A stretch of DNA of 64,000 nucleotides from Enchytraeus crypticus (taxonomy: Eukaryota; Annelida; Clitellata; Enchytraeida; Enchytraeidae), in the NCBI GenBank assembly GCA_905160935.1, contig CAJHZI010000422.1, forward strand, positions 646,001-710,000, read 5' to 3'. The notes beneath the pieces were generated by a model. The model saw nothing but the letters and a program-made list of their open reading frames with translations, did no database searches and was not told the DNA's origin. A program made the translations under genes and the position numbers. How positions within the stretch are numbered: the stretch's first letter is position 1; each line of letters opens with the position of its first letter. Shown here piece by piece: positions 1,053-58,993 of this stretch.

Positions 1053-3808
1053 CTTACGACCCAGGGCATAGATTCCTAGCACGACCTGCCAGAGATTCTG
1101 ATTCTCATAGAGATCAACTGTTTGGAAGAGATCAGTCTTGTTCACTCCGTACTTCTCACAGGCTGTCAGGTAGTTGTTGATGTTCTCCATCTGCTTGAAT
1201 GGCACCTTCATGTTGTTGTACTTCACTTTACCTATTATCTTGTCTGCCAGTCTAAACCGAAAACAGGATATATACATGTACACAGTTCTCCCTAAGCGAT
1301 TCAAGAATAAAGAAGGGACGTCCCTGACATCATCCTTGGAAACGGACGTTAAACCTTTATAATTATAACGAGTTTGGTAAGAAATATTCATACAAAACAT
1401 GAGATTAGCATCACTAATGTAATTATCAATTTCTTAAATTAAATAAATACTAATTTTACTGATATTCTACAGATAATCAATTAAGCATTATAATCAACGG
1501 TACAATTTAATTTTACAATCATCAACATCATCATTATCTTACCTTTCATCCCAGTTCGGGACAAGAATACATCTTCTCCACTCTTCTCTGTCTCTTGTTT
1601 AATTTAATATTTTTTAAATTAACAGTATAATAATATTAAAATTTCTTCTCCTTCAGTGCACTGCCAAATTCAAGGTTCAAGGTACATATTCATACTCCAA
1701 GTCGGTTCTCTTTAATTATTATATTAAAGTATAATAATCTAATTTAATAAAAAATACATTTAATTAATAGTTGTTTATCTCAGAGAGTGTAATGAGAGGT
1801 TTCACTAGGGGGCGGGGCTTACTTGCAGAGTATGATCCCGTCCTTGAGAGCCTCGTGGAATCTATCAGGTCCCAAAATCTCTTCATCCGGTACATTCTGC
1901 GCAATATCAATCAATCAAACACTCAACCATTCAATCAATCGACCGATCATATCAATCGATTTACCGCCCACTCGATCGATCATTTAACCAGATTCGATCA
2001 GTCAATAGATCAATCAGTGGAGGCGGATTTGGCGTATTTGGTTAAGTGTACGCTTCATAAACTAAGTTAAGCGACATCGAGCTCGGTTAGTCTATGGATG
2101 GGTCACCACCTAGGAAGAGGAATGAACAGATATCTCAGGATGTTGGAAGGTTATTCATAATCGGCGCTGACTGTAAGGTACAGCAATGTGACGTACTGTA
2201 ATAGTTATATAGGCAACGAATACTAATTCTGGTGCATTTGGATTTATTGAGCGCTCGTCAGCTCTGCTCACTGATTTTGGTTCCATGGTACTCAATATTG
2301 TCGTGTGGCACACTGGTAGTCCAATTGTGTGTTGTTGTTTCTTCTCTTCTGCAAATGCATTTAAACCGGTATGCTCTGGTCTTTTAGTGCTTGATGCAGT
2401 CATGGACGTCTGCTCTGATGTTATACAACTGTTGAATACTCTGGTATTTCAAGACATCACCCTGGGGTGAAGAACCGGCCGTTAAATCTTCATCATACTG
2501 TACGGTAATGAAGAAGAGTAATTAATCTGAAGTAGTTTTCCGATGCTTTCATACAACACTAGCTATAGACTAGTACTAACAGGATTGTAAAATCTTCATT
2601 ATACTGTACGGCAATGAAAAGGGTAATTTATCTGAAGTAGTTTTCCGTTGTTTTCATACAACTCTAGAGTACTAACAGGATTGAGGGGCTCTCCAATGAC
2701 GTCCTGTATCCACAGTCTCGCCTCCTGCTCCTTCTCCACCTCGTACTTAGCTGCCAACTGCGCTCACACAACAACAACATCCACTATAGACCTAGCTACT
2801 CTGTGGTGCCCGGGACACGGAAGAATCGACCAACCGTCATCTGCACGCGTCGTACGAGGCGACTAAACATAAACTGAAGTAGTATTTTTCTCATGCTATA
2901 CATATAGGGTACACAAAGTATGGATAAGGCATTGCCTTCAATTGTGAAAGGATTAACTTGTTGATCTAAGGAATGCTCTCTATGAAGCGTGAAAGCAGAC
3001 TCTGTGCATGAATATGTACCTTGGACCTGCCAGTGCACTAGAAAGTAAACGTTCGGGTAATTTTGTTGAGCAATTCTGTTTAACAATAATAATATTTAGC
3101 CTCAATAAAAATATTAAATATTTCACCTCAAAAACTGTTAGAAAAACTGATCAAAACAATAGACCCTCTGGAGTAATATTATAACAAGTCACAATAATAG
3201 AATAACATATCAGAATAACAGATCACAATAACAGAATAACAGATCACAATAACATATCAGAATAACAGATTACAATAACATAATAACAGTTCACAATAAC
3301 ATATCAGAACAACAGATCACAATAACAGAATAACAGCTCACAATAACATAGCAGAATAACAGATCACAATAACATATCAGGACAACAGATCAAAATCAGA
3401 ACAGACTAGCAGATCAGAATAACAGATTATAATAACTGAATAACAGATCAGAATAACACAATAATAGAACATATAAGCATAATAACAGATGAGAATACAG
3501 ATGAGAATAAGATATGAGAATAACAGATGAGAATAACAGATGAGAATAACAGATGAGAATAACAGATGAGAATAACAGATGACCGCAACAGCAGATCATG
3601 AGATAACGTCATAAGATGTAGCGGAAGAAGCCCATGCAGCATTCTCATGCTTCTACACAGTGACGACGATGAGCTGTAGTTCTTGAAGGAGACTGAAAGA
3701 TCTAGTTCTAACCTCATATATACGTAAGACTCAGTACAACATAACAGCAAAGCTCACCTTTCCCTTGATCTCTGCAGTCAATCCATAGCCTTTAGGTCTG
3801 GAAGCCAT
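1053..3808 (-). CDS. calponin/transgelin-like protein, 5' part (four exons, runs off left edge)
   Basis: Four coding exons on the minus strand, in transcription order 3808-3758, 2757-2677, 1896-1823 and 1251-1053. All have GT/AG junctions and compatible phases. They encode MASRPKGYGLTAEIKGK, then a helix ending in ARLWIQDVIGEPLNP, then a segment containing FHEALKDGIILCK, then KLADKIIGKV through VPFKQMENINNYL, a CEKYGV segment, DLFQTVDLYE and ALGRK. This is the N-terminal tail and single calponin-homology domain of the transgelin/Mp20 family, which binds actin and modulates smooth or striated muscle. The family's C-terminal calponin-like repeat (GLQMG type) is not visible, so it should lie left of position 1. 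The start was chosen because family members begin at this point and the exon ends in phase 0 at a good donor (gtgagc). Exon 3's acceptor directly follows a GATT tract, and exon 2's donor is tandemly duplicated. It could be transgelin, Mp20 or a short calponin; the missing 3' end decides. Confidence 0.9.
1900..1995. repeat. TCAA/GATT tract upstream of calponin-like exon 3
   Basis: Degenerate atcaatcaat repeats. On the sense (minus) strand they read gattgattgat and end a few bases before the acceptor at 1896. Confidence 0.75.
2480..2680. repeat. tandem duplication (~97 bp) carrying the exon 2 donor of the calponin-like gene
   Basis: Two copies of a unit containing atactgtacgg, aatgaa, ctgaagtagttttccg and tttcatacaac, each ending in agtactaacaggattg. 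Reverse-complemented, that end is the exon 2 donor CAATCCT|gttagtact. The real donor is at 2677 and the second copy is near 2586. Confidence 0.8.
3181..3600. repeat. minisatellite of AATAACAGATCA-type units
   Basis: About 3181-3440 is built of degenerate 24-28 bp units (cacaataacatatcagaataacagat). From about 3490 to 3580 a 13-bp derivative (gatgagaataaca) dominates. It lies in intron 1 of the calponin-like gene, about 160 bases from exon 1. Confidence 0.85.
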
Positions 3809-4007
3809 TGTGAAGTTACGTTCTGTTTAAATTTAGCTCCTGAAAGAAAGAAAGACAGAAATATAGAGCATCAAGAGTTGCTGACTCTTTACAATATGTG
3901 TCAACACCTGTGGCTTGTCTAGAGCCTGGAGACGAGATGAGAGGATCAGCAAGAAACCTTTAAAACCAAACATCCCGTATTACCAATGGTACACGTACCT
4001 GCCTGCT

Positions 4008-4300
4008 ACTTGCTGGTCAGCTTGCTGACCGCTGTTACGCGCTGATCAGCTTGCTGAAGGCTGCTACGTGCTGATCAGCTTGCTGAAGGCTGCTACGTGC
4101 TCATCAGCTTGCTGAAGGCTGCTACGTGATGGTAAGCTTGCTGAAGGCTGCTACGTGCTGATCAGCTTGCTGAAGGCTGCTACGTGCTGGTCAGCTTACT
4201 GAAGGCTGCTACATGCTGGTCAGCTTGCTGTAGGCTGCTACATGCTGGTAAGCTTGCTGAAGCTGCTACGTGCCGGTCAGCAAGCGTAGCAGCCTTCAGA
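4008..4300. repeat. 29-bp minisatellite
   Basis: About ten copies of a 29-bp unit (ctgaaggctgctacgtgctg followed by atcagcttg). Scattered substitutions alternate gatcagc, ggtcagc and ggtaagc. It is about 200 bases upstream of the calponin-like start codon, so it could sit in its promoter or 5' UTR. Confidence 0.9.
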
Positions 4301-5430
4301 TCGTGATCAGCTCAAAAAGTGATCACTCAAAAAGTGATAACTTTTTGTGACGTTCCAATAGCTAGCAATCGATAACTTTATCCACTGGCCATAGCCAATT
4401 TTGGATTTTATGAACTTTGCAATGCGCTAATATCCGCTGATTTGGCAGTTGATTTATCGTAATATTGGCTGTTAAGTTGACCGCTTGCTCGCTAAATTCC
4501 AAGTTAACGACTCTGGGAAATTTTTTCTGTGACAGTTTAACCGCGCACATCCAACTATCCAATAGCAGAGCTCAATGATCTTCAATCGCTTCGAATTCTT
4601 AATTCTTAAAAAAAATCTAACGTGTATTGAGTTAGGCTGGAGTTGTGTTCAAGATTGTTTCATAAAACGCAGAACGTGAATATTTAAGTTATCAGGGCAA
4701 CTAAGACCAAATCTATAACTACTTAAAAGTTACTTTTATCGCTTACACATAAAATGGGCCATTAATCGCGTGTGCATGAAACAAGCTGTCGATTGGCCAC
4801 TAAGATTTAACAGCCCAGGTGGCGCTGGCCAATAGCAGAGCACTGTAGCTTACAGTTATTGGAATAATTTTACCGACTTGACCTGAAGTTTATGAGTTGA
4901 AAAATGCTCATAAAATCCGAAGTCGAATATTAAGTTATAATACAAGCAATAAGGACCCTGTCCATAACTAATAATTGCCATCTAATATCGATGTGCTGTA
5001 AAATTGTGCGCTAGAGAACAAGCAGCAAACAGGATGAGCTTGGTTAGAACAGGATCTCGCATCGTAATTAACTCATTTAACTGTGTATCTGCATTGCTAG
5101 GTCTCTGTCACTCTATCACAGACAAGACTACCTGTGAAACAGTGCAGCAGACCACAATGTGTCGAGATCTACAAGCGGCTGCTGTATTTTTATATTTGTG
5201 AAACATTTCGAAGGGAGGGCGAAGGCATGCCAACGAAAGTGATCAGGGCTTTGTCATAGGGGGAAGTTAAAAACCCAAAAAAGGGCATCACACGTCTGAC
5301 AAGGAAAGATCAACCCCCCCCCCCCCCCCCAACTCCATCAGCAAACATAATCCTAGTTTTAAGCAACGACTGTTTACCACGTTCAGCAGGAATGTATCTG
5401 AATGAATAAGATGCTCTACTGGGTGACTGG

Positions 5431-5492
5431 GGTGAGGATTCAAATCTCAAGTCGGTGGAGAATGCTGCACCGACTTTAGATTTGAATCCTCA
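5431..5492. repeat. short inverted repeat (hairpin)
   Basis: Arms of about 25 bases (ggtgaggattcaaatctcaa... and its near-complement ending in gatttgaatcctca) are separated by a loop of about 12 bases. The arms carry a degenerate tRNA B-box-like gattcaaatc, suggesting SINE ends in head-to-head orientation. Confidence 0.7.
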
Positions 5493-6601: not shown

Positions 6602-6646
<45 letters not shown>

Positions 6647-13700: not shown

Positions 13701-16700
13701 TCCTCCGGTTTACCTCCAATGAGCCCATTTAAAATTTTAAAACAAAATACCAAATCAGAATGTAACCGTCTACGTTCAAGGGTTTTCAAATTCAAAAATG
13801 TTAACCTGTCTTTATAGGGCATGTTTTCTAGCTGTGGTATTCGCCTAGTGAAGTTCCGTTGCACCATTTCAATTTTTAAAATATCACCTACCAGATGCGG
13901 TGACCAGATAGGAGAGCAATAATCTAGTATAGGCAGAATATACGATTTATATGCAAAAAGTAACAGTCTGGTATCACAAGTTTTGAAGGCTCGAAATAAA
14001 AAGGAAATACGTTGTTGAGCCAAAGACACTATCTTAGCTATATGTGATGAAAAATTAAGTTTAGAATCAACCACAGTACCTAAATCCCACAACTGATCAA
14101 CAGAATTGATTTCAATATTTTCTACTTTATTAAGTTTATCCAAATTTGAAACGTCTTTATTAGTGATATTCATCGTACAACATTTTTTGATTGATATTCC
14201 TAATTGCCAATTCTTTGCCCAAATTGACAGTTGGTCTAGACTCTTTTGAAAACTTTCCAAATCTGCATTACATATAATTACAGAGTATAATTTTACATCG
14301 TCTGCAAAGTATTTTGTTTTAACTGATTCTAGAAAGACATAAGCAAGGTCGTTTATATATACTACGAAAAGGATAGGTCCTAGAACACTACCCTGTGGGA
14401 CTCCGCTGTCAATATTTATGATATCAGATAAAGTATGACATATTTTGACTTGTTGGGACCGGTTTTCTAAGTATGATGTTAGTATATCTAGTAGTGATCC
14501 ACTAATGCCCATCATGGAGAGCTTATAAATTAATTTTGGATGGCTCACAGAATCAAATGCTTTAGCAAAATCAATATATGCTACTCTGGTAAAAAGGCCA
14601 TCCTTCAGACTAAGCGTCCAATGATTTAAAGATTGCATTAGATTCGTACATGTGGAATGCTTAGCCATGAAACCATGTTGAGCATTTGTAATCATGTTAT
14701 TTTCAATAAAAAAAATTATCAGATCCAATTTGATTACACTCTCAAAAATTTTACAGACCACCACACAAGTTAATGATATTGGTCTGTAATTGTCTACTAA
14801 GCAAAATTTGCCGCCTTTAAATACCGGGGTGACATAAGCATGTTTTCACATGCTTGGGATTTTTCTGCTAGCAAATATACATTTAAACAGCTTGCATAGT
14901 GGATCTGCTAAGCTTGGAGCCAATTTCTTAAAGAAAATGGAAGGTATGCCATCAGACCCTGAAGCGAAGGATTTTATTAGTTTTTTCAAGATTCCAAATA
15001 GGTACTCTATTATTTGTAAAAGTTACTTCTGATTGGCTATTTAAATCCTATGCATGTATTTGCTCTGGTGTAAACGTGATTGATTAATTGTAATTTTGCG
15101 TGTGTGTACACAGGTGAGAAATGACTGATTAATTGTACCTGTACCTGTGTGTACACAGGTGTTAACTACCGCTATGATGAGACGCTGGTTGTGCCGATCA
15201 TTGAGAACACCCCAGAGGAGTCTGAGCTGACTGTAAGTCACTCTTATTTCTAGATCTCGTGTAGAATTCGATATAGTCGTGACGAGAATTGTTAGGCCTA
15301 GCAAGTGATCCAGTGGATCCACCAGAGACTCTCTGGCTAGGATAGAAACCTGTGAGCACCAGATTATCAGGTGTTCTCTGTTATCCTATCTCCCCCCCCC
15401 TCCTTTCCGTCCTGAGAGATGATAGTAAAGAAATAGTAGACGAAGAAATAGTGAAGTTGATCCTATTTTAATTCATGTTTACTTGCACTATGGAGGCTGT
15501 ATGGAGGCTGCTATAAGCAATGAGAGGCTACTACTACACGTGTTGTCATGTGTTATCATGTGTATTTATGTGCCCTGTGCAGGAGACTATGGCACAAGCA
15601 AAGAGTGACTACCCTGACACATGATTTTTTAAATCATGTGTATTTATGTGTATTTATGTGCACTGTACAGGAGTCTATGGCTCAAGCAATGAATGACTAC
15701 CCTGACACATGATCTTTTAAATCATGTGTATTGATGTATAACATGATCTTTTAAATCATGTGTATTTATGTGTACTGTACAGGAAGCTATGGCACAAGCG
15801 AAGACTGACTACCCTGCCACATGATCTTTTAAATCATGTGTATTTATGTATAACATGATCTTTTAAATCATGTGTATTTATGTATAACATGATCTTTTAA
15901 ATCATGTGTATTTATGTGCACTGTACAGGAGTCTATGGCACAAGCAAAGAGTGACTAACCTGACACATGATCTTTTAACTCATGTGTATTTATGTATAAC
16001 ATTATCTTTTAAATCATGTGTATTTATGTGTACTGTACAGGAAGCTATGGCTCAAGCAATGAGTGACTACCCTGACACATGTGCTGTGCTAGTGAGGCGA
16101 CACGGCGTGTATGTGTGGGGCAAGAACTGGGAGCAAGCCAAGACCATGTGAGTCCTTCAGTCTTTTACATTACGTGTGACTGGTGCTGAAACAACTGACA
16201 CAGTTTTAGATTTTCTTACAGTTTACAAGATCTGCTGTAGAAAGAAAGTAAGCACGTACTATAGTGAAATGATCAACTATGTTGATATCTATCACTTTAC
16301 TACCACATGTTTAATTCGTTGGGCAATTTAGAACATTTTCCGCGTAACCAGTCCAGTGAATGTCCAAGATTTTATTCTCAGATCAGCGCGGCTGAGATTC
16401 GAACCCACGAGAGTTCAATTCACCTCAGGATCTGTCATGTAGAACTTCGTGACATTACCCCTACGCTATTGGGACATTCTAGAACTGTGTAGGCCTGATT
16501 TAGAAGTAGAAACGTGGTTGAAATTATCTTCTAAGCCTGTTGCTGATGTGTACTATAGATTGAACAACAACTATAAACCTTTTCATGTTTAATATTTTTC
16601 TTAATGGCTCCGTGGTGAATGGATGTATTCTGTGCTATAAATAGCAATGTAAGTTTAACATTAGGTTATGATTCATAAGTTTTTAATCTCAAGATTTGAG

Positions 16701-17026
16701 TATGGCACAAAAACAAAAGAGAAACTGATCCAATCGTGAGTCCATAGACTTTCTGATTTATTATAATTATCTATTATCCACAGGTCGGAGTGCTACGACT
16801 ATATGTTGTCTCTTATGAATGCTACGACTATCTGTTCTCTATTATGAATGCTGCGACTATCTGATATCTATTATCTATTATCCTCAGGTCTGAATGCTAT
16901 GACTATCTGTTCTCTATACACAATGAGATGAGGGGGAGGGGTATTGACCCCACCGCCCCTCCCACGTTCTTCAAGGGGGCCTACACCTCGGCAGTTCATC
17001 GTAATGAGCAGAATGGAGAGAGCTGA
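10137..17026 (+). CDS. APIP: APIP, methylthioribulose-1-phosphate dehydratase (7 exons, complete)
   Basis: Exons: 10137-10157, 10818-10912, 11723-11771, 12890-13133, 15159-15232, 16041-16147, 16888-17026. They total 729 nt and encode 242 residues, the length of human APIP. All junctions are GT/AG and phases match. The enzyme dehydrates 5-methylthioribulose-1-phosphate in the cytosolic methionine salvage pathway; in vertebrates it also binds Apaf-1. It belongs to the class II aldolase/MtnB fold. Diagnostic segments are [68 protein letters not shown] and [14 protein letters not shown]. Expected zinc ligands are His101, His103 and His182, with catalytic Glu126 and the conserved Cys83. Exon 1 is only seven codons (MDSKYDK) and is the least certain; it was chosen for its ATG, phase-0 donor and position. 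Acceptors of exons 5, 6 and 7 are preceded by duplicated partial exons. Intron 4 carries an antisense LINE. Confidence 0.96.
10345..10436 (+). mobile_element. tRNA-like SINE head
   Basis: Contains an A-box-like gttagctcagtaggcccgg and a B-box-like tggttcaaatccattg about 60 bases apart, followed by a short tail with (TCAA)n and a family D 3' end on the opposite strand. It is not a clean tRNA: the stems do not pair well. It lies in APIP intron 1. Confidence 0.45.
10590..10711. repeat. TA dinucleotide microsatellite
   Basis: A long (TA)n run with a degenerate left end. It sits about 100 bases upstream of the APIP exon 2 acceptor. Confidence 0.95.
11449..11690 (+). mobile_element. tRNA-derived SINE, family B
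   Basis: Begins gaatgtcttggtagcgtaggg (tRNA A-box-like), has a B-box-like gggttcgaatccc, then gctgatctgagagtaaaatc, and ends with gtgatagatatcaacat and catttcacaataatatgtg. Other copies are at about 16250, 24641, 46575, 54430, 56362 and 58095. It lies in APIP intron 2, just upstream of exon 3. Confidence 0.8.
13210..15012 (-). mobile_element. non-LTR retrotransposon (LINE) fragment with reverse transcriptase
   Basis: Antisense insertion in APIP intron 4. The open frame 14764-13523 has reverse-transcriptase blocks in order: [18 protein letters not shown] core, [14 protein letters not shown], and the catalytic [10 protein letters not shown], followed by a CR1/jockey-type C-terminal region ([14 protein letters not shown]). 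The same frame extends upstream to about 15012 ([14 protein letters not shown]) but is interrupted by a TGA at 14848-14846, where related elements usually have Trp. The 5' half (endonuclease, ORF1) is missing, and the 3' end falls in an A/T-rich run near 13230. It is therefore a dead, 5'-truncated copy, though most of the RT frame is intact, which suggests fairly recent insertion. Confidence 0.9.
15080..15158 (+). repeat. duplicated acceptor region of APIP exon 5
   Basis: The stretch gattgattaattgta...tgtgtacacaggtg occurs at about 15078-15116 and again at 15124-15163. The second acag is the real exon 5 acceptor; the first is followed by gtgagaaatgactga, so its copy would stop quickly. Confidence 0.65.
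15580..16040 (+). repeat. tandem decoy copies of the APIP exon 6 acceptor and exon start
   Basis: Four upstream copies of the exon 6 beginning (acag then GAAGCTATGGCACAAGC... GACTACCCTGACACA) start near 15592, 15671, 15782 and 15929. The real exon starts at 16041. Each decoy keeps the AG and about 40 bases of exon, then runs into TGA in frame (ACA TGA) because the copied segment ends there and continues into tcttttaaatcatgtgtatt. The spacer itself is repeated extra times without the exon piece. Confidence 0.85.
16250..16487 (-). mobile_element. tRNA-derived SINE, family B
   Basis: Reverse-orientation copy in APIP intron 6, with the gatcaactatgttgatatc end at the left and the tRNA-like head (gggattcgaacccacga in this orientation) at the right. 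Confidence 0.8.
16784..16887 (+). repeat. tandem partial copies of APIP exon 7 start
   Basis: A decoy acceptor (tatccacag) at about 16776-16784 is followed by GTCGGAGTGCTACGACTAT, nearly identical to the true exon 7 start at 16888. Two further fragments (aatgctacgactatctgttc and aatgctgcgactatctgata) lie between them. Confidence 0.8.
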
Positions 17027-19024
17027 AGACAGGCTGCTCGAGTTAGATGTGACCGTATCTCTGATCTGCCTTACTATATGTATTCAGAATTATTTCAGTG
17101 GTGGACTGATTCCTTGCTATATGTATTCATAATTATTAATTCAGTGGTGGGCTGACACAGTGATTGCATTAAGTAATGTTTGTATGTATGCTTCTTTTAC
17201 TTTCTTTAAGCTGAATATTTAATTCTACTAAAACAATAACAACAGAATTAGAGTGCTACTGTCGTCCATGACAACATTGACCACTATGGTACCAATTCCA
17301 ATCCGATGAGCACAGTGTTGGTTCTAAAAGCAGTGCAAGCCAAAATACGGGAAGTCAGTCCGAGGAAGGGTACTTGCTGAATAGAGGTTTACGTGTTGGT
17401 CTCAGTTCCTGTGCAATGATTGATTAGGAGAGGTGAAAGAGAAAAAGAGAAAAAAGTGATAAAATACTAAATAGCAATATAAATGCTAAATGGTGTTGGT
17501 ATGGATTGACTGATGGAAAATGTGTTGAGAAATGAAGAGAACTGGATGGGGCTTGGTCTTAGATGGGATGTTTTGTTAAACAGACGTGATAGACAGAAAA
17601 ATGAAGCAGAATATAGTTAGGGGAAGACCGAGCCTTGAAAGTTAGATGATTGCCTATGTTGTTATGCAAGAAGACAGATTTGCGTTGATAGCTCAGCAGT
17701 CTCATCTCCTATAAATATCCTGGGCTCGCCCGTCACTGACAACGCTTTCGAGTGAGGAAACTGACGTTAACCTTAGCTATACCAGCTTATCCTATAAATG
17801 TAGTTCATTTGTGAGTCTCACTCTAGTGCGTATAATCTTGTAAATTTCTTGTACAACTTGAGGATGTAAACGTTTCACTAGTGTTATATAATCACGTGCT
17901 CATATTATAATTTATAACCTCTCTCATAGATCTGTTTACATAATTACGTCTACTGTTTAATCATTGAACGGTATCAATTAATAAACATTTATCATTTAAA
18001 CATTTAGCATTGCACGTTTGTGTTACTGACTCCTTGTAGGCTCTCATAGTTGTAGCATAGACTCTTTAGAGTCTGTTAACTGACGGGCAGCTAGTGACAT
18101 CTGGTAAATAATTGTAAAAAGCGTTACAATTATTTATCAGATAGCACTAGCAGCCCGTCAGTTTTCAGTTTCCTTGCTTATTCATATGTTGTATTTGTTT
18201 AGTCAACTTGTCCTCTTGTTTTGTTAACAAGTATTTTTAAGCCCATGGAGACAGAAGAGCTTGTGGTCATGTGCTATAATGTTTTGATATGCCATAATGT
18301 ATCTTCTGATCAAGAACACGTTCAAATTTCTTTAAAATCTATTGCAATAGGACGAGCCTTTTGCCTTTTTACAAACTATATCAGTCAGTCATGTCATGAA
18401 CCTAGTTATAATCTAGAAACAGCTCTATGTTAACAAACAACTCCTCGGATGGCATAAATGTCAAAAACAACTATGAACAAGTTCTATAATTAGACACAAC
18501 TAAGAACAAGAGACATGAACTATGAACCAGCTCTATGATAATAAGAACAAGGAACAAGTTTTATGATAACAAGAACAAGGAATAAGTTTTATGATAACAA
18601 GAACTAGGAACAAGCTCTATGATAATCAGAACAGGTAACAAGCTCTATGATAATAAGAACAAGGAACAAGTTCTATGCTAATAAGAACTAGAAACAACAA
18701 GCTCTATGATAATAAGAACAAGGAACAAGTTCTATGATAATAAGAACAAGGAACAAGTTCTATGATAATAAGAACTAGGAACAAGTTCTATGCTAATAAG
18801 AACTAGGAACAAGCTCTATGCTAATAAGAACTAGGAACAAATTCTATGCTAATAAGAACTAGGAACAAGCTCTATGATAATAAGAACTAGGAACAAGTTC
18901 TATGCTAATAAGAACTAGGAACAAGCTCTATGATAATAAGAACTAGGAACAAGTTCTATGCTAATAAGAACTAGAAACAAGCTCTATGATAATAAGAACT
19001 AGGAACAAGTTCTATGATAAGGAA
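17027..19024. other. interval between APIP and laminin beta (convergent 3' ends)
   Basis: Both genes point into this interval, so it holds both 3' UTRs. I see a family C repeat at about 17230-17400, a partial family A SINE at 17690-17790, an inverted repeat at 18078-18163 and a minisatellite from about 18480. No coding exon is recognised. Confidence 0.6.
18078..18163. repeat. near-perfect inverted repeat, ~40-base arms
   Basis: The left arm begins aactgacgggcagctagtga and the right arm ends cactagcagcccgtcagtt, with a six-base loop (aaagcg). It could be a small foldback element. Confidence 0.8.
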
Positions 19025-19055
19025 CTATGAACAAGTTCTATGCAAGATGGTCGCT
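18480..19055. repeat. 28-bp minisatellite overlapping the laminin beta stop codon
   Basis: About twenty degenerate copies of a 28-bp unit (aacaagttctatgataataa followed by gaactagg). On the minus strand the rightmost unit reads CATAGAACTTGTTCATAG, which encodes the last residues HRTCS and the stop of laminin beta at 19025. Confidence 0.9.
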
Positions 19056-22000
19056 GTTTTGATATCTGATACAAGAGAGCTGATATTTGACGTCAGTTTC
19101 TCAGCCTCTCTTGTTTTCTCTATAAACTCTTGCTCCGCTGTCAGCAGTCTAGAGTTCAAATCTGCGCCGCAGAAAACAACATATAATTAATCTCATTTAA
19201 TAATAAAATCAACTTCATCTACTGGGCCGAAATAAATTCCCTTCAGGGTCAGTAAAACTTGTATTAAATCAATCGAGAACTGCAGCTGTATCAAAGAGCT
19301 GAATTGACCTATTGCAGATACTGTGAGAGGCTATGAAATTCACTTTCATTTTAAAAACTATATTTCTTCTTGTAATTATCATTTTTTCATATAAATTACC
19401 TGAGTTGTTACAAGGGCACTATGTTTGGAGCTATGGGATGCTCAGTGGTGAGCGAGATAGAGGGCTTCAGTAATAAAATCATTCCACGTGTATCTCATCT
19501 CTCTGATTCTGTGGCTCATGGGCAAGCGTCTAGACCATCACAGTGGCGTGATCATGACAGCTAGGTTGAAATAACAGCAGTAAAGCTGTCACCTACCTTC
19601 AATTGATATAACAGCAGTAATAATAATAACAACAGTTAGAGTGCTACAGTCATCAATGACAATATCGAGCACTATTGAGAGAACATCAAGCCGGCGAGCA
19701 AAAAAGAAAGTCCAAAAACGGTGCAAATTCCAAAATCAAGTTAATCAGTCCAGAGGTTTCAGTAAAGCTAAGCAGTTTACCTTCAGCTTGAGCTCTGTAT
19801 GTAAACATTCTTTGCAGCAGCTGCTCAGCTGTCTGGCTCAGCTGCTCAGCTGCTGCTCTCCTCACTGCTGTCTCGCTGTGTGACGTGTTCACAGCAGCTG
19901 TCAGCTGCTCTAGACTAGCTGTCAGCTGCTGTGCCTCCTACGTCAATCAATCAATCAATCAGTCAATCAATCAAGCAATCAGCCTGTCAAACAATCAATC
20001 AATCAACCAGTCAACCAATCAGTCAGTCAATCAACAATTAGTCGATCAATCAATCAGTCAATCAATCAAACAGTCAATCAATCAATCAATCAATCAATTG
20101 CTACTTATTGTAAGACTTAGTGTAAAACAAAGCCGACCATATATTTTCCTTAACGGTCAATAGTTTATACAATTCTCTTAACACTGATCTACAATGATCT
20201 TAACGTAAATCAATCAATAACATTTTAAAGTCCGGCTCCTCGCCATAAGACAATGTCATAGACATAATTATAAGCTAGATATATCTATAAGCTATATTAT
20301 AAAAGAGATATTGGCTGTATTACAAGCAGGCTATAAACAAAATTATAAGCTATATATATTATATAGGAGCTCTAGATAGCTATAATATAGGAGAGCTAGT
20401 ATAAACAGAGGATGTTAGAACCTGCATGGCTTGCTCTGTCAGAACCTCTGCTTGTCCCACTACCTGTATTGCTCTCTCCTTGTTTATCTCATTCTCTATT
20501 TGTCTCTCTCTCACTGCATGCAGTCTACTCTTCAATCCATCCAGTGTCTCCAATGTACTGTTCTCACTCGTAGCAGAGCTTACCTGAGCAACATTCCAGT
20601 TGTTCGTGATAACATCAAGTACTGTGCACCCTGTGATAAACAACTCGCATAACCTTTGAGCTAGGAGCATATCCTATAGAGCTGTGTGTATAAAGCAACT
20701 GTATCCAGCTGCTGCTGCAGTTATATTTCTTAGAGTATAAATCAGCTGCTACAGCTGTTTCTTAGAGTATAAATCAACTGCTGTAGTTATTACTTAGAGT
20801 ATAAATCAGCTGCTGTAGCTGTTTACCTGCGCATCGAGCTGCTGCTGCAGCTGCTCTATGACGTCACTAGTCTGTGAGATCCCGGCCTGTGATTGGTCGT
20901 TGATGATAGCTGCTGAGCTCAGAGCCTCCTTAGCTCTCCTAGCCATAGTGTAGACCTTCTCAGCCTCCAATCTGTTAAACAAATATCAGCCATAGTGCAC
21001 TCGTCATCCATGATGTACTCTGTCCCTTACATCCTGTACTTGACCCAATAGGTGGTGTTAGATAAGATATACTAGATGTGGGCCTACTACATATGATATA
21101 CTTAGTGTGTTAGGTTGGTAGGTTGTAGTGTGTTTAACGTCAAGGTCAGAAGCACAAGGATTCTCTTCAAGAAGACTCGATACACTCGAGCTACCGTCAC
21201 AAAGATAAATGTAAAAGAAAGTAGCAAATGTTACTTATGAATTAAGTTACCTAAAACAGGTAAAACAGATACTTGGTGTGGGCGGTCCGTTGTTTCCACA
21301 GCTCTAGGGCAGCTCGACGGTTGTCTGCCTCGTTGACTATCGACTGAACATTTGTCAACTGAGCGACCACAGAGCTGATCTCATCAGCCACTTGTTCTAT
21401 CATCTCAGGTCTTACAGATATGTTGAGAGGTAGCGTCGTGCTGATCAACTGTAATATAGTTAAATACAGTAGAATAGAGGTATTAAGTTTTCTTAAATAC
21501 AGTAAAATAGAAGCTTTCATCATCATCATCATCATCATCATCAGTTCCTTGAGTTTTGTACAGAATATAGGGCGGCGACATTCCTCCATTCGTTTCTATC
21601 ACCAGCAAACTTCAGAGCGTCTTTCCATGAAATGTTTAATGCTCTCAAATCCTTGTTGATCGTATTTAGCCAAGTACTTCTAGGTCTTCCTCACTTCCTT
21701 TTTCCTTGAGTTGGCTTCCAGTTAACTGCAGTCTTTGCGTATCTATCCTCAGACATTCTCAGTAAATTACCTAAAAACCTCAACCTTCTCTCAGAAACTA
21801 TTTCATCTTATTTTCTTTGTCCACTCCTTTCAAGTACTGTTTCATTTTTGACATGGTCCCAGTAGTGGATATTTAAAATTCTTCTGAGGCATCTTTGTTG
21901 AAAACAGTTTAATTTGTGCTTTATTTTACTAGAACTTTCTCAGATTTCACATGCATACAATAAAATTGGTTGAATAATTGTTGAATATATTTTATCTTTA

Positions 22001-35710: not shown

Positions 35711-35741
<31 letters not shown>

Positions 35742-36240
35742 GACAGCCAATCAATCAATCAGTCAATTAGTCAAACAGCCAATCAATCAATCGGTCAGTC
35801 AATCAATCAATCAGTCAAATAGCCAATCAATAGAGGTAAAATGGAAGGGGAAAGAGGCAGGGGCAGGCCGAGATTTGGTATGTTAGAAGATTTAAAGATC
35901 CACCCATATGTGGAAATGAAGAGGAAAGCGGAATATAGAAAAGAGTGGAGGCGTTATATACCATGGACCTGTCAGTAGGCAGTGTACTAATGGAGAGAGA
36001 GAGATATCACATATTAAGAGACCTCAGATAGTTTTCCAGACTCTGCCTCATAGAGTAAATAATCCGGGTTTGGCAGGAAGTAGCCCTGCATGACGTGATC
36101 ACAGGTTCGACCAATCAGATAGGGTTTGCAGAAGCACCGCCCACTGAACAAGTCACATCCACTTCCATAGGCTCCTCCTACCACACAGTCACATGATTGA
36201 CAGCCCTGAGGTGAACGACTGAGGTTCCAGTAACCATTCT

Positions 36241-36274
<34 letters not shown>

Positions 36275-36319
36275 AGAATCAATCAATAAATCAATCAATC
36301 AATTAATCAATTTATCAAA

Positions 36320-36351
<32 letters not shown>

Positions 36352-36932
36352 CAACCTGTCAATCAATCAACCCAGCAATCCATCTATCAATAAATCAATA
36401 AACCAAGAAATCAATTAAGAAATGAATCAATAATTGAATAAATATCAATAATAGGACTATCATCAACAAATTAATCAATAAAATAATGGAAAAATTAGAA
36501 CATCAGTCTGTTAAAAAAAATTAATTAAAGAAAATTAAGAAATAGATATCTATGGCAAATAGGCTATCTATCAAATTCTAAGTAATAAATAAACCTTAAA
36601 TAACTAAATCACACAGTAGAAATTTTAAATTAATATTAAAATTAATATTTATTTCATTATTAATTTAATTTCATAAATAATTGCTCTTTAATTTAATATT
36701 TAGAGTAATTATTTATGAAATTAAATTAGTAACAGATTAAATATAAAATTGTTAATAAATTAGAGTAGATCATATCGAATGATTCATTAGGCAGAGATTG
36801 GTTGTTACGCTGCATACATGACATCTGTTGCACTGCCTCCCTGTCACGTATCTCTTACACAGGCACTGACCAGAGGCAGGGTGGCAGTCTATCCCTCCAT
36901 CAGCTGAACCAATAGTGTCGCAGTAACATGCT

Positions 36933-36984
<52 letters not shown>

Positions 36985-46834: not shown

Positions 46835-49800
46835 ATGAATCATATTTCCGATAACATCCCTGCTCAATCAGAGAAAGAAATGACAACATCTGCGCTAACA
46901 GAACATCATAAAGAAAACGGACTGGAGACGGGCTCTAGAAGTGACCAAGAAGAAGAAGAAGAAGAGTTAGGCTTGGATGAAGAAGAAGAAAATGAAGAAG
47001 AAGACCTGGAGAATGGTTTAGGTGCTATACCTGGAATTCACTTTGATGAAGATCTGGCTTTTTCAAATCACCGGCAGCGGCTAGCCGGTCGCACGGCTGA
47101 GCCGGAGCTGCCGAGCACAGTGGAGGTTTTGAAGACGAGAGATGGCAGCACTGTTTATCTCGTGGGCACCGCACACTTCAGTGAGAGCAGTCAACAAGAT
47201 GTCTGCCGTGTGAGTCGAGAAATAATCTTAGTAATTAAAATAATCTCATCATTAATTTTCACACTTCGCAGTTCGTTAAGACCTCCTCGTGTTGTGTACG
47301 GGTTGTTTGAAGAGTTGACCAGCCAGTGACTCCGCGTGTCGTAGAAGGCGACTAAAGCACTAACATCCATACCAGAGTCAGAAAAGGTATTAGGTTGGGG
47401 AGCGCCTAGGCTTCAGAAATTGCTACAAAAATTTATCTGAATGGATAAGTCTCAAATAGTGGATTGGCTGGTGATTGATTGATTGATTGATTGATTGACA
47501 GATAATGCAGTCGACACAGCGTGACGTAGTTCTAGTAGAGCTGTGTAGTAGTAGGATTAACCTCTCTATTGATTGATTGATTGAGTTATTGATTGATTGA
47601 CTGATTGATTGACTGATTGATTGATTGATTGACTGATTGATTGATTGATTGATTGACGTACAGATAATGCAGTCTACACAGCCTGATGTGGTTCTTCTAG
47701 AGTTGTGTAGCAGCAGGATTAACCTATCTATTGATTGATTGATTGATTGACTGACTGATTGATTGATTGATTTATTGATTGATGTACAGATAATGCAGGC
47801 CACTCAGCCTGATGTGGTTCTACTAGAGTTGTGTAGCAGTAGGATTAATGTACTCAGCTTGGATGAAGAGACACTGATGAGAGAGGCTGGAAATATCAAC
47901 ATGGAAAAAATCAGACTAACCATTCAACAGGTCTCACTAACTCACTGACTAATTGAAAGATTGATTGATTGACAAAATGGTTGATTGACAGATTGATTGA
48001 TTGATTGAATAACTGATGGATAGATTGAATGACTGATAGAATGACTGACGGATAGATTGACTGACTGATTGATTGACTGACAGGTAGATTAATTGACTGA
48101 CTGATTGATTGAGTGAGAGGTAGATTGATTGACTGACAGATTGATTGATTGATTTATTGAATGACTGTCAGATCGATTGACTGATTGATTGATTGACTGA
48201 TCGTTAGATTAATAACTGACTGACAGATAGATTGATTGACTTGTTGATTGATTGATTGACTTGTTGATTGATTGATTGACTTGTTGATTGATTAGTTGAC
48301 TGATAGATAGATTGATTGATTTGTTGATTGATTGATTGACTTGTTGATTGATTGACTGACAGATAGATGGATTGACTTGTTGATTGATTGATTGACTGAC
48401 AGATTGATTGATTGATTGACTGATTTATTTATTTATTGATTGATTACTGACAAGACTGGTACCTGGAGTGCTGCACATACTGTTTATTGATTGATAGATT
48501 GATTGATTGATTGATAGATTGATGGATTGATTGATTGATTACAGACAGGACTAGTACCTGGTGTTCTACACGTATTACTGCTCAACATGACTGCGCACAT
48601 CACTAGACAGCACTGTTGATTGATTGACTGATTGATTGATTGATTGATTGATTGACTGCAGACAGGACTGGTACCTGGAGTACTGCACAACATACTGTTG
48701 ATTGACAGATTGATTGATGGATTACAGACAGGTCTGGTACCTGGAGTGCTGCACATACTGCTGCTCAGCATGACGGCTCATATCACTAAACAGCTGGGCA
48801 TGGCGCCGGGGGGAGAGTTCAGGACAGCGTTCAGAGAGGCCAAGCTCATCCCAGGCTGCAGGGTTCACCTGGGTGACCGGCCCATCAGCATCACCCTGGG
48901 CAGGGCCCTGGGGTCATTAACCTGGCTGCAGAAACTGAGACTTGCCTGGCATCTCCTTACTACCAATGATACCATCAGGTGAGCTGATTGATTGATTGGC
49001 TGATTGATTGATTGGTTGATTGATTGATAGATTGATTAGCTGATTGATTGATTGATTGATTGATTGGCTGATTGACTGATTGATTGATTGGTGTAGTGAT
49101 TGACTAAATGATACATTTGAATATTATTCACGATACAGTTGATTAATTCATGTATTCATTTGTGGGTATAGATATTGTTCTTTTGCTTAGTCAGCTATCC
49201 TGTTGAGTAATTGTTCATAATAATTTATGGATTACTGATCAATCAAAAAACTAGTCTGTGACTGATTAATTGGCCTATTGATTGATTGATAATTGGTCAG
49301 TTAATTTATTGATTGATATATTCACTTACAGATCGATCTGGGTGAATTGATCTGCAGTGATGTGTGCTGTGGGGACGTCCTTGACATCATCCCTGGATGA
49401 GAAAACGGACGTTAAGCCTTTAGTATTGTTATAGTAATTATTATTATTGATTGATTGGTTGGCAGACTGATTGATTGATTGACTGCAGTAAGGAGGACGT
49501 GGAGAAATGTAAACAGAAGGACTTGCTGGAGGAGATGTTGAAAGAGATGACGGGAGAATTTCCTGCGCTTAGTCGCGTGTTTGTTGCTGAGAGAGATCTG
49601 TATCTAGCCAACTCTCTCCAGCAAGCAGCTCAGCGTCTCATTGACCCTCAGACCAGATCACGTGAGTTCTGTATACTAGGTCACACGTGATGACGTGAGC
49701 TTTGTTTACTAGATCACACGTGATGACGTGAGCTTTGTTTACTAGATCACACGTGATGACGTGAGCTTTGTTTACTAGGTCACACGTGATGACGTGAGCT

Positions 49801-50300
49801 TTGTTTACTAGGTCACACGTGATGACGTGAGCTTTGTTTACTAAGTCACACGTGATCACGTGAGCTTTGTTAACACACGTGATCACGTGAGCTTTGTTTA
49901 CTAGGTCACACGTGATGACGTGAGCTTTGTTTACTAGTCACACGTGATGACGTGAGCTTTGTAGATCACACGTGATGACGTGAGCTTTGTTTACTAGGTC
50001 ACACGTGATGACGTGAGCTTTGTTTACTAGGTCACACGTGATGACGTGAGCTTTGTTTACTAGTCACACGTGATCACGTGAGCTTTGTTTACTGTAACAC
50101 ACGTGATAGCTCAATAGCGCAGTCAGTAGATCGAGTGGCTGAAAATTGTATGATATATTTCCCGGCTAATCTTGTAGTGAGTTAGTCCAGTTGATTTATA
50201 TTTCTATGGATTTGTGGTTCAGTGGATTCTTTTTAATTGTAGATTATAAATACTTGTAATAATTAGCAGCTATAAGCTATCATAGAATGGTAGCACAGTC

Positions 50301-50342
<42 letters not shown>

Positions 50343-51935
50343 CATGTGTCTAGGATTCATTCCGTCAGTGATTGTTGGAGTGGTTGGTATCGGTCACGTG
50401 GCTGGCATCAAAGAGAACTGGAACAAGACTGCCGATATTAAATCACTACTCACGTATGTACTCGTGTATCCCCCGTTGTATTGCATTGTATTGAAACAAT
50501 GGTATTGTACTTGATTGCAGTGGAATGAATTGTATTGTATTGTATTGTAGTATGTTGTATTTTATTGTATTGTATTTTATTATATTGCATTGTTTTGTAC
50601 TGTATTGAACAGTATTATAATATATTATCTTGCATTGTTTTGCATTATGCTGTATTGTTTTGTATCGTATCATAGCATATCATATAACATTGTATTATAA
50701 TGTATTTTATTGAATTGTATTGCTTTGTATTGCCTTGCATTGTATATAATTATTAGCTAGTGGTCTAATTTAAAATTATTTACAAATTAATTACCTAATT
50801 ATTTCTTTACATTGACAGGATTTAATATGATTTCTCTAGATACTGAATTGTTAGACTTTAAAAATACGCAAGATTAAGTGCGTGATTATTTGTCATTATT
50901 TTATTATTTTTCTGTATTTTAACTGCGTGATACACCCCATTAGCTACTGCGGAATAGGCGAAACGTATACTGTGTAATTCGTAATACAAAACTGGGCAAG
51001 AACTGCAGAACTGCTGAGGAATGCAATTGGAAACCATATCAGGGCCATACGTTTCTTCCAAGCCTAGGACATTAGTGGTATTGATAAAGGCTTGTTTGTT
51101 GTCCTGGGTTAATTGGTTAGATCGATGAAGCATTTAAAGCGAACTGGTAAAGCTGGTAAAGCTAATGTTAACGTCAGTTTTCTCACTCGAAGCGACTCAG
51201 TGACGAGCGAGCCCAGGATTGTAGTAGAATATATGCTTTGGATCTGCTGATCATAGCAACATTGGAGAGAGCGAGAGACAAGCATATTCCTGCCTGATCA
51301 TCCTTTGTAATATGTGTGGCAGGTAATCGACTGTGAAATTTTCTTTAATTAAAGTTCAGACTTTACAAAGTATTGAATATATAATGAGTATTTAATATGG
51401 CATCTCTACTTAATTAGGAAGTGTTGAGGTTTTTATTTATGTTCACTCTACTGTCATACACTTTGTGAGAATAGTTTGATGTTTGTAATTTTTGTTCACG
51501 TTATGCTTTGTAAAGGTGATTGATTTATTACTTTATTATTTGATTGATTGACTGGTTGATTGATTGACTGATTGATAGATTAAGTGATTGATTGACTGAT
51601 TGATTGATTGGTAGATTGTTTGACTGATTGATTGACTGATTAATTGATTGATTGATTGACTGCTTGATTGACTGATTGAATGATTGATTAATTCAGTGAT
51701 TGACTAATTGATTGATTGATAGATTAACTGATTGATTGATTGACTGATTGATTGATTGATTGACTGATTGATTGATTGATTCAGAGTACCACCACCTAGC
51801 ACAGTAAGCACATGTGCCAGGTACTTGGTAAGAGGTGCCGCTGTAGGCACAGTGCTTTACGGCTGCTACAAGATCTGCAAGTTCCTCACGTTCACTTGTG
51901 CCTCTGATCTTCTGCCTGCAGCCTCTAGTAGATGA
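46835..51935 (+). CDS. TRABD: TRABD, TraB domain-containing protein (6 exons, complete)
   Basis: Exons: 46835-47209, 47790-47930, 48728-48978, 49489-49661, 50354-50453, 51785-51935. They total 1191 nt and encode 396 residues, with GT/AG junctions and compatible phases. It is a TraB/PrgY family protein. These carry two GxxH motifs and are related to Tiki-type putative metalloproteases; the exact role of TRABD is unsettled. Residues 1-90 are acidic and low-complexity (DQEEEEEELGLDEEEENEEE), then VYLVGTAHFS with the first GxxH at 111-114, QPDVVLLELC, HITKQLGMAPGGEFRTAF, HLGDRPISITL, CKQKDLLEEM, GEFPALSRVFVAERDLYL, and IVGVVGIGHVAGIKENW with the second GxxH at 325-328. Exon 6 encodes a hydrophobic segment ([14 protein letters not shown]) as expected for the C-terminal membrane anchor. 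All five acceptors follow GATT tracts. Exons 2 and 3 have upstream decoy copies, the exon 4 donor seeds a minisatellite, and exon 6 has a second copy at 58843. Confidence 0.95.
47460..47789 (+). repeat. GATT tract with two decoy copies of TRABD exon 2
   Basis: (GATT)n alternates with two exon-2-like segments starting at about 47503 and 47664, each preceded by acag and reading ATAATGCAGTC... through AGGATTAACCT. Each encodes IMQSTQ(R/P)DVVL(V/L)ELC and SSRINLSID, then stops at the TGA of the following GATT repeat. The true exon starts at 47790. Confidence 0.9.
47950..48440 (+). repeat. long degenerate GATT tract in TRABD intron 2
   Basis: About 490 bases of gattgattgac, gattgatagattg and gacttgttgattg variants on the sense strand, upstream of the exon 3 decoys. 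Confidence 0.92.
48438..48727 (+). repeat. three decoy copies of TRABD exon 3 start within GATT repeats
   Basis: Partial copies start near 48450, 48547 and 48664. The second is longest and encodes TGLVPGVLHVLLLNMTAHI plus TRQHC before TGA. The true exon 3 starts at 48728 with ACAGGTCTGGTACCTGGAG. Differences between the longest copy and the real exon are mostly at third codon positions. Confidence 0.88.
48985..49100 (+). repeat. GATT tract after TRABD exon 3
   Basis: gattgattggctgattgatt units directly after the exon 3 donor. A further short tract precedes exon 4. Confidence 0.9.
49370..49445 (+). mobile_element. short SINE-like 3' module
   Basis: ggggacgtccttgacatcat, then gagaaaacggacgttaagcc and an ATT-rich tail. 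The same module is at about 59435-59515 and, less complete, at about 470-540, 1310-1365 and 43815. It shares gacgtcc...gacgttaa with families A and D. Confidence 0.55.
49662..50105 (+). repeat. 33-bp minisatellite seeded on the TRABD exon 4 donor
   Basis: About 13 copies of a 33-bp unit (gtgagctttgtttactaggt plus cacacgtgatgac). The array starts at the donor itself (AGATCAC|gtgagttctg) and each unit repeats a (t)gac|gtgagc donor-like site and a palindromic cacgtg. Confidence 0.92.
50300..50343 (+). repeat. GATT tract abutting TRABD exon 5 acceptor
   Basis: Pure (GATT)n about ten bases before the acceptor atgtgtctag| at 50353. Confidence 0.95.
51530..51784 (+). repeat. GATT tract abutting TRABD exon 6 acceptor
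   Basis: Degenerate (GATT)n with gactgattg variants runs directly into gattgattcag|AGTACC. Confidence 0.95.
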
Positions 51936-54420: not shown

Positions 54421-54424
54421 CGCT

Positions 54425-58589: not shown

Positions 58590-58760
58590 GTTAATGCAGC
58601 CGACACAACCTGATGTCGTTGAACTGGAGCTATGTAGCTGTTGGATTAACATATAGTGATTGATAGATTGATTCATTGATTCATTGATTGACAGATGATG
58701 CAGTCCACCCAGCCTGATGTTGTTCTACTAGAGTTGTGTAGCAGCAGAATTAACCTATCA
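58590..58760 (+). pseudogene. two copies of TRABD exon 2 start, downstream duplicate
   Basis: Copies at about 58593 and 58694 read ATGCAGCCGACACAACCTGA and ATGCAGTCCACCCAGCCTGA. The first has lost the acceptor AG (gactgttaatg). The second keeps acag and encodes MMQSTQPDVVLLELC plus SSRINLSID before TGA. GATT repeats surround both. Confidence 0.85.
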
Positions 58761-58791
<31 letters not shown>

Positions 58792-58842
58792 TTATTATAG
58801 AATGATTGATTAACTAATCGATTGATTGATTGATTAATTCAG

Positions 58843-58993
58843 AGTACCACCACCTAGCACAGTAAGCACATGTGCTAGGTACTTGGTGACAGGTGCTGCT
58901 GCAGGCACAGTGCTGTACGGCTGCTACAAGATCTGCAAGTTTCTCGCGTTCACTTGTGCCTCTGATCTTCTGCCTAGAGCCTCCAGTAGATGA
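58843..58993 (+). pseudogene. second copy of TRABD terminal exon (intact frame)
   Basis: The copy has the same length as exon 6 (151 nt), the same acceptor context (gattgattaattcag|AG) and the same stop. It encodes [20 protein letters not shown] and [20 protein letters not shown] followed by DLLPRASSR. By eye it has four amino-acid changes and about five silent ones against exon 6. Homology continues to about 59085. Exons 3-5 are absent in between, so it is either a partial duplicate or an alternative last exon reached by a long intron from exon 5. Confidence 0.8.

What the first reader, a model, noticed from the sequence alone, without database searches (positions are those of the whole stretch)
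2480..58993. Tandem duplication repeatedly anchored on splice junctions in four unrelated genes
Seen directly: tandem repeat units contain the splice site, usually with an edge of exon, at calponin-like exon 2 donor, APIP exon 5, 6 and 7 acceptors, laminin exon 7, 11, 12 and 25 donors, laminin exon 5 acceptor (partial copy), laminin stop codon, TRABD exon 2 and 3 acceptors and TRABD exon 4 donor. Further minisatellites begin within about 60 bases of laminin exon 8, 18, 19, 21 and 26 acceptors. Random minisatellites in about 45 kb of gene sequence should rarely include junctions. Inference: either a mutational process targets splice junctions (for example R-loop or spliceosome-linked DNA breaks, or copying from partly spliced RNA) or such repeats are tolerated or selected there.
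Basis: partly seen in the sequence, partly recalled or inferred. Interest (0 to 1): 0.88.

Follow-up and report, generated by a model that had tools for sequence, protein, structure and literature searches.

The report
Branch-point-like repeats abut splice acceptors
In this animal genome ordinary tandem duplications avoid exon-intron borders, but one short repeat, TTGA read in the direction of the gene, sits right against the end of about three in ten of the introns examined, where it resembles a row of copies of the splicing branch site.

Summary
I modelled four genes (calponin-like, APIP, laminin beta, TRABD; 43 introns, 86 junctions). Eight of 40 minisatellites, plus four weaker duplications, include a junction. 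This is not more than chance: uniform placement gives 12.3 +- 2.6 arrays, and a finer duplication track covers 9 of 86 junctions against 16.4 +- 3.3 expected (P of so few = 0.011). Junctions are avoided, as purifying selection predicts.

A narrower signal is very strong. Sense-strand (TTGA)n microsatellites end 0-25 nt before the acceptor in 15 of 15 window introns that carry them, and in 12 of 14 in 13 kinesin loci picked without regard to TTGA (combined 27 of 29, 9.4 expected, P = 4e-14). (TTG)n does the same (7 of 8). CT, AT, TGA and TTAA arrays do not. Genome-wide, GCAG follows a TTGA array within 12 nt at 1396 places and precedes one at 291. In 65 introns without a nearby array, YTGAY is enriched 2.2-fold at 15-45 nt, the branch-point zone. 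I read (TTGA)n as head-to-tail branch sites kept by splicing. That function is inferred.

The parts
1905..1940 (-). sense (TTGA)n array at the calponin-like exon 3 acceptor (1896)
   Evidence: 8 nt from acceptor
19941..20100 (-). sense (TTGA)n array at laminin acceptor 19937
   Evidence: 3 nt from acceptor
25716..25822 (-). sense (TTGA)n array at laminin acceptor 25704
   Evidence: 11 nt
26110..26227 (-). sense (TTGA)n array at laminin acceptor 26097
   Evidence: 12 nt
27798..28026 (-). sense (TTGA)n array at laminin acceptor 27794
   Evidence: 3 nt
33292..33401 (-). sense (TTGA)n array at laminin acceptor 33274
   Evidence: 17 nt
35656..35819 (-). sense (TTGA)n array at laminin acceptor 35630
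   Evidence: 25 nt
36239..36402 (-). sense (TTGA)n array at laminin acceptor 36238
   Evidence: 0 nt
36932..37047 (-). sense (TTGA)n array at laminin acceptor 36930
   Evidence: 1 nt
38923..39049 (-). sense (TTGA)n array at laminin acceptor 38916
   Evidence: 6 nt
47470..47784 (+). sense (TTGA)n arrays, interleaved with partial exon 2 copies, at TRABD acceptor 47790
   Evidence: 5 nt
47952..48724 (+). sense (TTGA)n arrays through most of the TRABD intron before acceptor 48728
   Evidence: 3 nt
48983..49486 (+). sense (TTGA)n arrays in the TRABD intron before acceptor 49489
   Evidence: 2 nt
50297..50344 (+). sense (TTGA)n array at TRABD acceptor 50354
   Evidence: 9 nt
51535..51784 (+). sense (TTGA)n array at TRABD acceptor 51785
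   Evidence: 0 nt
2470..2690 (-). two-copy duplication of about 104 bp spanning the calponin-like exon 2 donor (2677)
15546..16081 (+). tandem array spanning APIP exon 6 acceptor (16041), 41 bp of exon
16791..16874 (+). copies of the APIP exon 7 5' edge just upstream of its acceptor (16888)
23414..23674 (-). 81-bp array spanning laminin donor 23616
34610..34793 (-). 30-bp array spanning laminin donor 34772
35313..35475 (-). 25-bp array spanning laminin donor 35472
20703..20850 (-).
18517..19042 (-). 28-bp array overlapping the end of the laminin coding sequence
47472..47848 (+). array of units made of TTGA repeat + AG + exon 2 edge, spanning TRABD acceptor 47790
48627..48755 (+). 66-bp array spanning TRABD acceptor 48728
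49656..50107 (+). 33-bp array spanning TRABD donor 49661

Best explanation
There are two separate things here. (1) Junction-spanning minisatellites are ordinary tandem duplications in a repeat-rich genome. They fall at random and are thinned by selection in exons and at junctions. Those that span a junction survive because one copy still gives the right mRNA. (2) Sense-strand (TTGA)n arrays belong to the 3' splice site itself. The species' branch site is inferred to be YTGAY, so (UUGA)n is a head-to-tail row of UUGAU branch sites that also stands where the pyrimidine tract would be. Arrays probably start from a branch site by replication slippage. They are kept, or are harmless, mainly at the 3' end of introns and in sense orientation, because every unit can serve as branch site and any length change leaves a usable site. 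Once there, they act as breakpoints for secondary duplications that carry AG and exon edge along (TRABD exons 2 and 3). Shown: position, strand, unit specificity, YTGAY enrichment. Inferred: branch-site use, slippage origin, selection.
For: Window: sense arrays in 15 of 43 introns, all 15 within 25 nt of the acceptor; 2411 sense against 86 antisense bases in gene bodies. Independent kinesin set: 12 of 14 introns with sense arrays within 13 nt of the acceptor. Both sets: 27 of 29, 9.4 expected, P = 3.6e-14; (TTG)n 7 of 8, P = 1.1e-5; controls within 25 nt: CT 0 of 9, AT 1 of 6, TGA 1 of 7, TTAA 0 of 11, TTGT 0 of 2 introns. Of 964 units of 1-6 bp, TTGA (636) and TTG (123) have the most exact-array bases in the last 80 nt of 91 introns. 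YTGAY at 15-45 nt in 65 introns without a nearby array: 29 seen, 13.0 expected, back to background beyond 40 nt. At least one YTGAY in that zone: 27 of 27 array introns against 22 of 65 others. Flanking 200 kb, no homology used: beside 50 coding-like segments, 11 sense arrays on the 5' side, 0 antisense. Genome-wide: TTGA5-N0-12-GCAG 1396 places, GCAG-N0-12-TTGA5 291, TTGA5-N0-12-CGGA 200. Three of the five distinct array places first listed precede an exon resembling FCP1 phosphatase, an importin-alpha-like armadillo protein and MAPKAPK2. Kinesin introns at matching profile positions occur with and without an array (L029 and L032 at 242; L031 and L036 at 233/234), so arrays look later than the introns.
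Against: No transcript or lariat data: all junctions are computed, my exon alignment scores acceptors itself, and branch-site use is untested. Arrays reach several hundred bp, far more than a branch site needs. A pure slippage model does not explain why antisense or mid-intron arrays are so rare. Five of 8 antisense (TCAA)n arrays lie within 30 nt of a donor (P = 0.0015), which a branch-site model does not predict. (TTG)n arrays have the same placement but are not YTGAY. The cruder genome-wide count gives only a 1.24-fold excess (TTGA5-N0-12-YAG 8076, TCAA5-N0-12-YAG 6536); decay of TCAA to TCAG probably inflates that control. A gene-free test of array flanks was weak outside the window: first YAG nearer downstream than upstream p = 0.022 window, 0.096 left, 0.23 right; coding score after it p = 0.0006, 0.007, 0.31. 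Two of the five genome places had no recognisable exon (L003 by Pfam; L004 by coding score only). In the introns without a nearby array TGTTG is enriched more strongly than YTGAY (41 against 8.3), and in the 27 window introns alone TTGAT was only 6 against 2.5 (uncorrected p = 0.03).
Confidence: 0.55

Rival explanations
1. The arrays are made at the 3' splice site by a splicing- or RNA-linked process (for example reverse transcription of intron lariats across the branch, or breaks at R-loops), and selection plays little part.
For: Extreme strand and position bias, with few arrays mid-intron or antisense, which neutral slippage alone would not give. Arrays are longer than function needs.
Against: CT, AT, TGA and TTAA arrays in the same introns show no acceptor bias, so the process would have to be specific to TTGA and TTG. 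Ordinary duplications avoid junctions. Antisense arrays at donors are unexplained.
Confidence: 0.15
2. Intron elements: the arrays are the tails of a mobile element or introner that created or entered these introns.
For: Some retroelements end in short tandem repeats (recalled, no call). Dispersed repeats are common in the window.
Against: Among 27 array introns masked for TTGA only two pairs share any other sequence at E 1e-4. Kinesin introns at matching positions occur with and without arrays. Arrays end at the AG, not at random distances.
Confidence: 0.07
3. One reading: tandem duplication in general is targeted to splice junctions.
For: About a dozen junction-spanning duplications exist in four genes.
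Against: 8 of 40 arrays against 12.3 expected; 9 of 86 junctions against 16.4 expected. Arrays also occur within exons, in frame (37539-37686; 28511-28665 if no intron lies there) and mid-intron.
Confidence: 0.05
4. The arrays are tolerated rather than favoured: a T-rich, AG-free repeat is one of the few expansions that does not break a 3' splice site, and expansions elsewhere are lost for other reasons.
For: Neither TTGA nor TTG contains AG. Array introns show fewer AG at -45 to -4 (none in 14 of 27 against 16 of 65).
Against: CT arrays are also AG-free and pyrimidine-rich yet none lies within 25 nt of an acceptor (0 of 9). Antisense TCAA is AG-free too.
Confidence: 0.18

Closest known systems
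CFTR c.744-33 GATT(5-7) repeat, human intron 6 (PMC4449874, passages read)
   Same: A sense (GATT)n = (TTGA)n tetranucleotide repeat just upstream of an acceptor; alleles differ in length.
   Different: One locus with 5-7 units. The paper reports minor exon 7 skipping with both tested alleles, and the word 'branch' does not occur in its main text. Here the arrangement recurs in about 3 of 10 introns sampled, up to hundreds of bp.
Gomafu/MIAT tandem UACUAAC repeats (PMC3116199, search listing only)
   Same: Tandem branch-site-like repeats in an RNA that, by its title, associates with splicing factor 1.
   Different: In a noncoding exon of a noncoding RNA, said to compete with introns; not at 3' splice sites.
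Intron gain by tandem duplication (PMC4974935, PMC2891723, search listing only) and dual-specific AG-GT sites in UBC (PMC10809524, abstract read)
   Same: Duplicated splice-site sequence within tandem repeats, as in the laminin donor arrays with AG-GT in most units.
   Different: No new intron is shown here; the arrays lengthen introns.
Introner-like elements (PMC4457414, search listing only)
   Same: A recurrent sequence feature shared by many introns.
   Different: Only the 3' end repeat is shared, not an element body.

Membership tests
Branch-point sequence (yUnAy, recalled consensus) | Motif enriched at about 15-45 nt upstream of the AG | tested here: met
   YTGAY 29 against 13.0 expected in 65 introns without a nearby array; all 27 array introns have it
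Branch-point sequence (yUnAy, recalled consensus) | Lariat formed at that A | not testable with these tools
   needs RNA-seq lariat reads or RT-PCR
Introner-like element | Similar sequence over most of many introns | tested here: not met
   2 sharing pairs among 27 masked array introns
Intron gain by tandem duplication | Intron absent in relatives, flanked by duplicated exon sequence | not tested
   no related species' DNA available; kinesin introns at matching profile positions suggest arrays entered existing introns
Junction-targeted tandem duplication | More junctions inside duplications than random placement gives | tested here: not met
   9 of 86 against 16.4 +- 3.3; 8 of 40 arrays against 12.3 +- 2.6
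Acceptor-anchored microsatellite | Sense arrays end at the acceptor more often than after circular shifting within the same introns | tested here: met
   27 of 29, 9.4 expected, P = 3.6e-14; the kinesin set alone 12 of 14, P = 1.9e-7

The most novel reading that the evidence does not exclude
In this lineage a large share of introns use a distinct class of 3' splice site, a sense (UUGA)n or (UUG)n microsatellite that replaces the single branch site and pyrimidine tract, and the arrays are generated at the branch site by a splicing-linked process such as lariat reverse transcription, so that splicing itself writes repeats into the genome.
Probability: 0.12. Interest if true: 0.92.

Novelty: new variant of a known kind. 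Interest (0 to 1): 0.7.

Why it matters
Microsatellites are usually treated as noise in introns. A repeat that marks about three in ten sampled acceptors, nearly always in one orientation, and whose unit matches the inferred branch site, would be a natural test of how flexible the branch site and pyrimidine tract are, and of whether splicing shapes where repeats arise. It is checkable with RNA-seq of the species. It also bears on gene annotation and on genome instability: a downstream partial TRABD copy joins exon 2 copies to the last exon inside such an array.

Tried and rejected
Pfam on one whole frame gave nothing, so I scanned 300 of 663 filtered ORFs, the 150 longest per strand. An ab initio exon chain was too permissive and was replaced by homolog profiles. 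By hand I dropped zero-length exons produced by that program, merged laminin 37441-37746 and 28355-28746 (split by the program at in-frame repeats), used 22771 rather than 22753 as one laminin acceptor, and extended the last TRABD and APIP exons to their stops. Unmodelled first exons of laminin and TRABD are not in the counts. In the kinesin set, exons under 30 nt were dropped before counting. The stop-codon array was left out of the 40-array test because it runs out of the gene (1 of 41). In one search locus L003 was read in the wrong orientation; one search repeats it on the right strand.

Rejected: junction-targeted duplication; introner or element tails; selection on AG-free repeats as a full account (CT arrays). 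The antisense genome control TCAA5-N0-12-GCAG did not complete. The reading that the motif is fixed at the U of yUnAy (0 of 34 single-substitution units change it, among the 20 commonest forms shown) is only suggestive, since such changes would make CpG or AG. Literature: ten searches showed no report of TTGA arrays at acceptors genome-wide, but I saw at most the best 10-25 titles of each list (one search listed none), and most subscription papers are not held. PMC11310860 and PMC6387519 were searched for terms only; the passages shown do not describe it. The species was not identified.


Full report
What the window is. The window is part of an unnamed animal genome of 524 Mb in 802 contigs. 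Profile alignment of homologs to the DNA gave laminin beta on the minus strand with about 30 exons, APIP and TRABD on the plus strand, and a calponin-like gene on the minus strand. All junctions are computed; there are no transcripts. The set used has 43 introns and 86 junctions in 38,108 bp of gene body, one junction per 443 bp.

Most of the listed arrays are present. Eight of 40 minisatellites within gene bodies include a junction: APIP 16041 acceptor; laminin donors 20827, 23616, 34772, 35472; TRABD acceptors 47790 and 48728; TRABD donor 49661. Weaker duplications cover the calponin-like donor 2677, the APIP acceptors 15159 and 16888, and in part the laminin acceptor 40694. The array near laminin donor 38728 lies just inside the intron and does not include the junction.

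Is it more than chance? No. Uniform placement of the same 40 arrays gives 12.26 +- 2.62 that cover a junction. Capping exon overlap at 60 bp gives 7.43 +- 2.43, at 30 bp 4.99 +- 2.02; observed 8. A null that allows no extra exon overlap gives 1.89, but it excludes junction cover by construction. A finer track of local duplications, with simple repeats masked, covers 9 of 86 junctions against 16.43 +- 3.25 after circular shifting, P of so few 0.011; that track misses two of the cases above (2677 and 20827). Duplication coverage rises from exon to intron across the border, as expected if selection removes duplications from exons. Unit anatomy is that of plain tandem duplication.

What does stand out. 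Listing microsatellites by the strand of the gene showed that (TTGA)n is nearly always sense: 2411 sense and 86 antisense bases in gene bodies, although laminin and TRABD lie on opposite strands. All 15 introns with a sense array have it within 25 nt of the acceptor, at 0, 0, 1, 2, 3, 3, 3, 5, 6, 8, 9, 11, 12, 17 and 25 nt. Circular shifting inside the same introns expects 6.0 (P = 8e-8). The 25-nt limit was set after seeing the window, so the next set is the fair test.

Independent test. In 49 introns, 14 have sense arrays and 12 of these lie within 13 nt of the acceptor; 3.4 expected within 25 nt, P = 1.9e-7. The two exceptions, both in L034, are 16-17 nt long. Three arrays that looked mid-intron turned out to sit before exons the first search had missed (L031, L036, L041); those three exons rest on my own alignment.

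Specificity. Over all 92 introns TTGA gives 27 of 29 (P = 3.6e-14) and TTG gives 7 of 8 (P = 1e-5). CT gives 0 of 9, AT 1 of 6, TGA 1 of 7, TTAA 0 of 11, TTGT 0 of 2. Of 964 units tested in 91 introns, TTGA and TTG have the most bases in the last 80 nt; AAC, the reverse complement of TTG, makes no array there at all.

Genome scale. GCAG follows a five-unit TTGA array within 12 nt at 1396 places and precedes one at 291; the permuted CGGA follows at 200, and it contains CpG. A looser YAG count favours sense by only 1.24 (8076 against 6536), a weak control because TCAA decays to TCAG. Places are overlapping matches, so one array can count more than once, and the antisense GCAG control did not complete. 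Of the five distinct array places that happened to list first, three precede an exon: FCP1-type phosphatase (Pfam NIF 9.4e-9; E 5e-11), an importin-alpha-like armadillo protein (Pfam Arm 0.0016, below its cut-off) and MAPKAPK2 (E 1.4e-16; here the exon follows the last of three array + AG + exon-edge units). In 200 kb beside the window, 50 coding-like segments have 11 sense arrays on the 5' side, 0 antisense on the 5' side, 2 sense on the 3' side and 4 antisense on the 3' side. One of the last four seems to be a wrong-strand shadow of a BAX-inhibitor-like exon (name from my reading). A gene-free test of the same 200 kb was weak: coding score after the first YAG p = 0.007 left and 0.31 right, YAG distance p = 0.096 and 0.23.

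What the repeat may be. In 65 introns without an array near the acceptor, YTGAY is enriched at 15-45 nt before the acceptor (29 against 13.0), falling to background beyond 40 nt. That is where a branch point lies, and YTGAY fits the recalled animal consensus yUnAy. (UUGA)n is therefore a row of branch-site-like units. Array introns have 4.4 such motifs in the zone against 0.45, and a lower pyrimidine fraction before the AG (0.50 against 0.61). TGTTG is enriched even more strongly in the other introns, which fits the (TTG)n class and shows that branch-site resemblance is not the whole story.

Origin. Array introns do not share an element body. Kinesin introns at matching profile positions occur with and without arrays (L029 and L032; L031 and L036), so arrays seem to have been added to existing introns. 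Slippage at a branch site with retention by splicing is the simplest account, but the scarcity of antisense and mid-intron arrays is more extreme than I can explain, and five of eight antisense arrays lie just after donors.

At TRABD exons 2 and 3, and at the MAPKAPK2-like exon, the repeated unit holds TTGA repeats, the AG and the exon edge. The partial TRABD copy at 58577-59088 joins exon 2 copies to the last exon inside a TTGA array. So acceptor arrays seem to act as breakpoints for some junction-spanning duplications. This is inference from three loci and one copy.

Known relatives. The closest is the human CFTR c.744-33 GATT repeat, a sense (TTGA)n array near one acceptor (PMC4449874, passages). 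None of the titles listed by ten searches describes the pattern genome-wide; the lists were capped.

Noticed in passing
37539-37686 and 28511-28665: Minisatellites inside laminin EGF-like exons with periods of 21 and 27 bp and no stops: in-frame coding repeats in domain loops. For the second, an intron with weak sites is an alternative.
   Followed up: partly
58577-59088: Partial TRABD copy: two exon 2 copies joined to a copy of the last exon inside a (TTGA)n array, lacking the exons between.
   Followed up: partly
L031, L035, L036 and window 41029-41045, 41549-41575: Antisense (TCAA)n arrays within 30 nt downstream of donors, 5 of 8 antisense arrays (P = 0.0015); arrays tend to point towards the exon on both sides.
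   Followed up: partly
L005:1420-1620: A MAPKAPK2-like exon whose TTGA array, AG and first 20-odd exon bases occur three times in tandem.
   Followed up: partly
11448-11689, 16241-16481, 46555-46801, 56359-56603 and others: A dispersed repeat family of about 240 bp, 82-90% alike, on both strands, plus several shorter families.
   Followed up: no
13526-14845 (-): A 440-aa open frame that reads as reverse transcriptase inside an APIP intron (one RVT_1 match; the assignment to this frame is by reading). Described only.
   Followed up: no
4003-4281: A 29-bp array ending 4 bp from a strong donor-like site at 3999, in a possible 5' untranslated exon of the calponin-like gene.
   Followed up: no
array introns of both sets: Units with one substitution between perfect TTGA units change the first T (16), G (9) or A (9) but never the second T (0 of 34 among the 20 commonest forms shown); this could be branch-site constraint, CpG decay or AG avoidance.
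   Followed up: no
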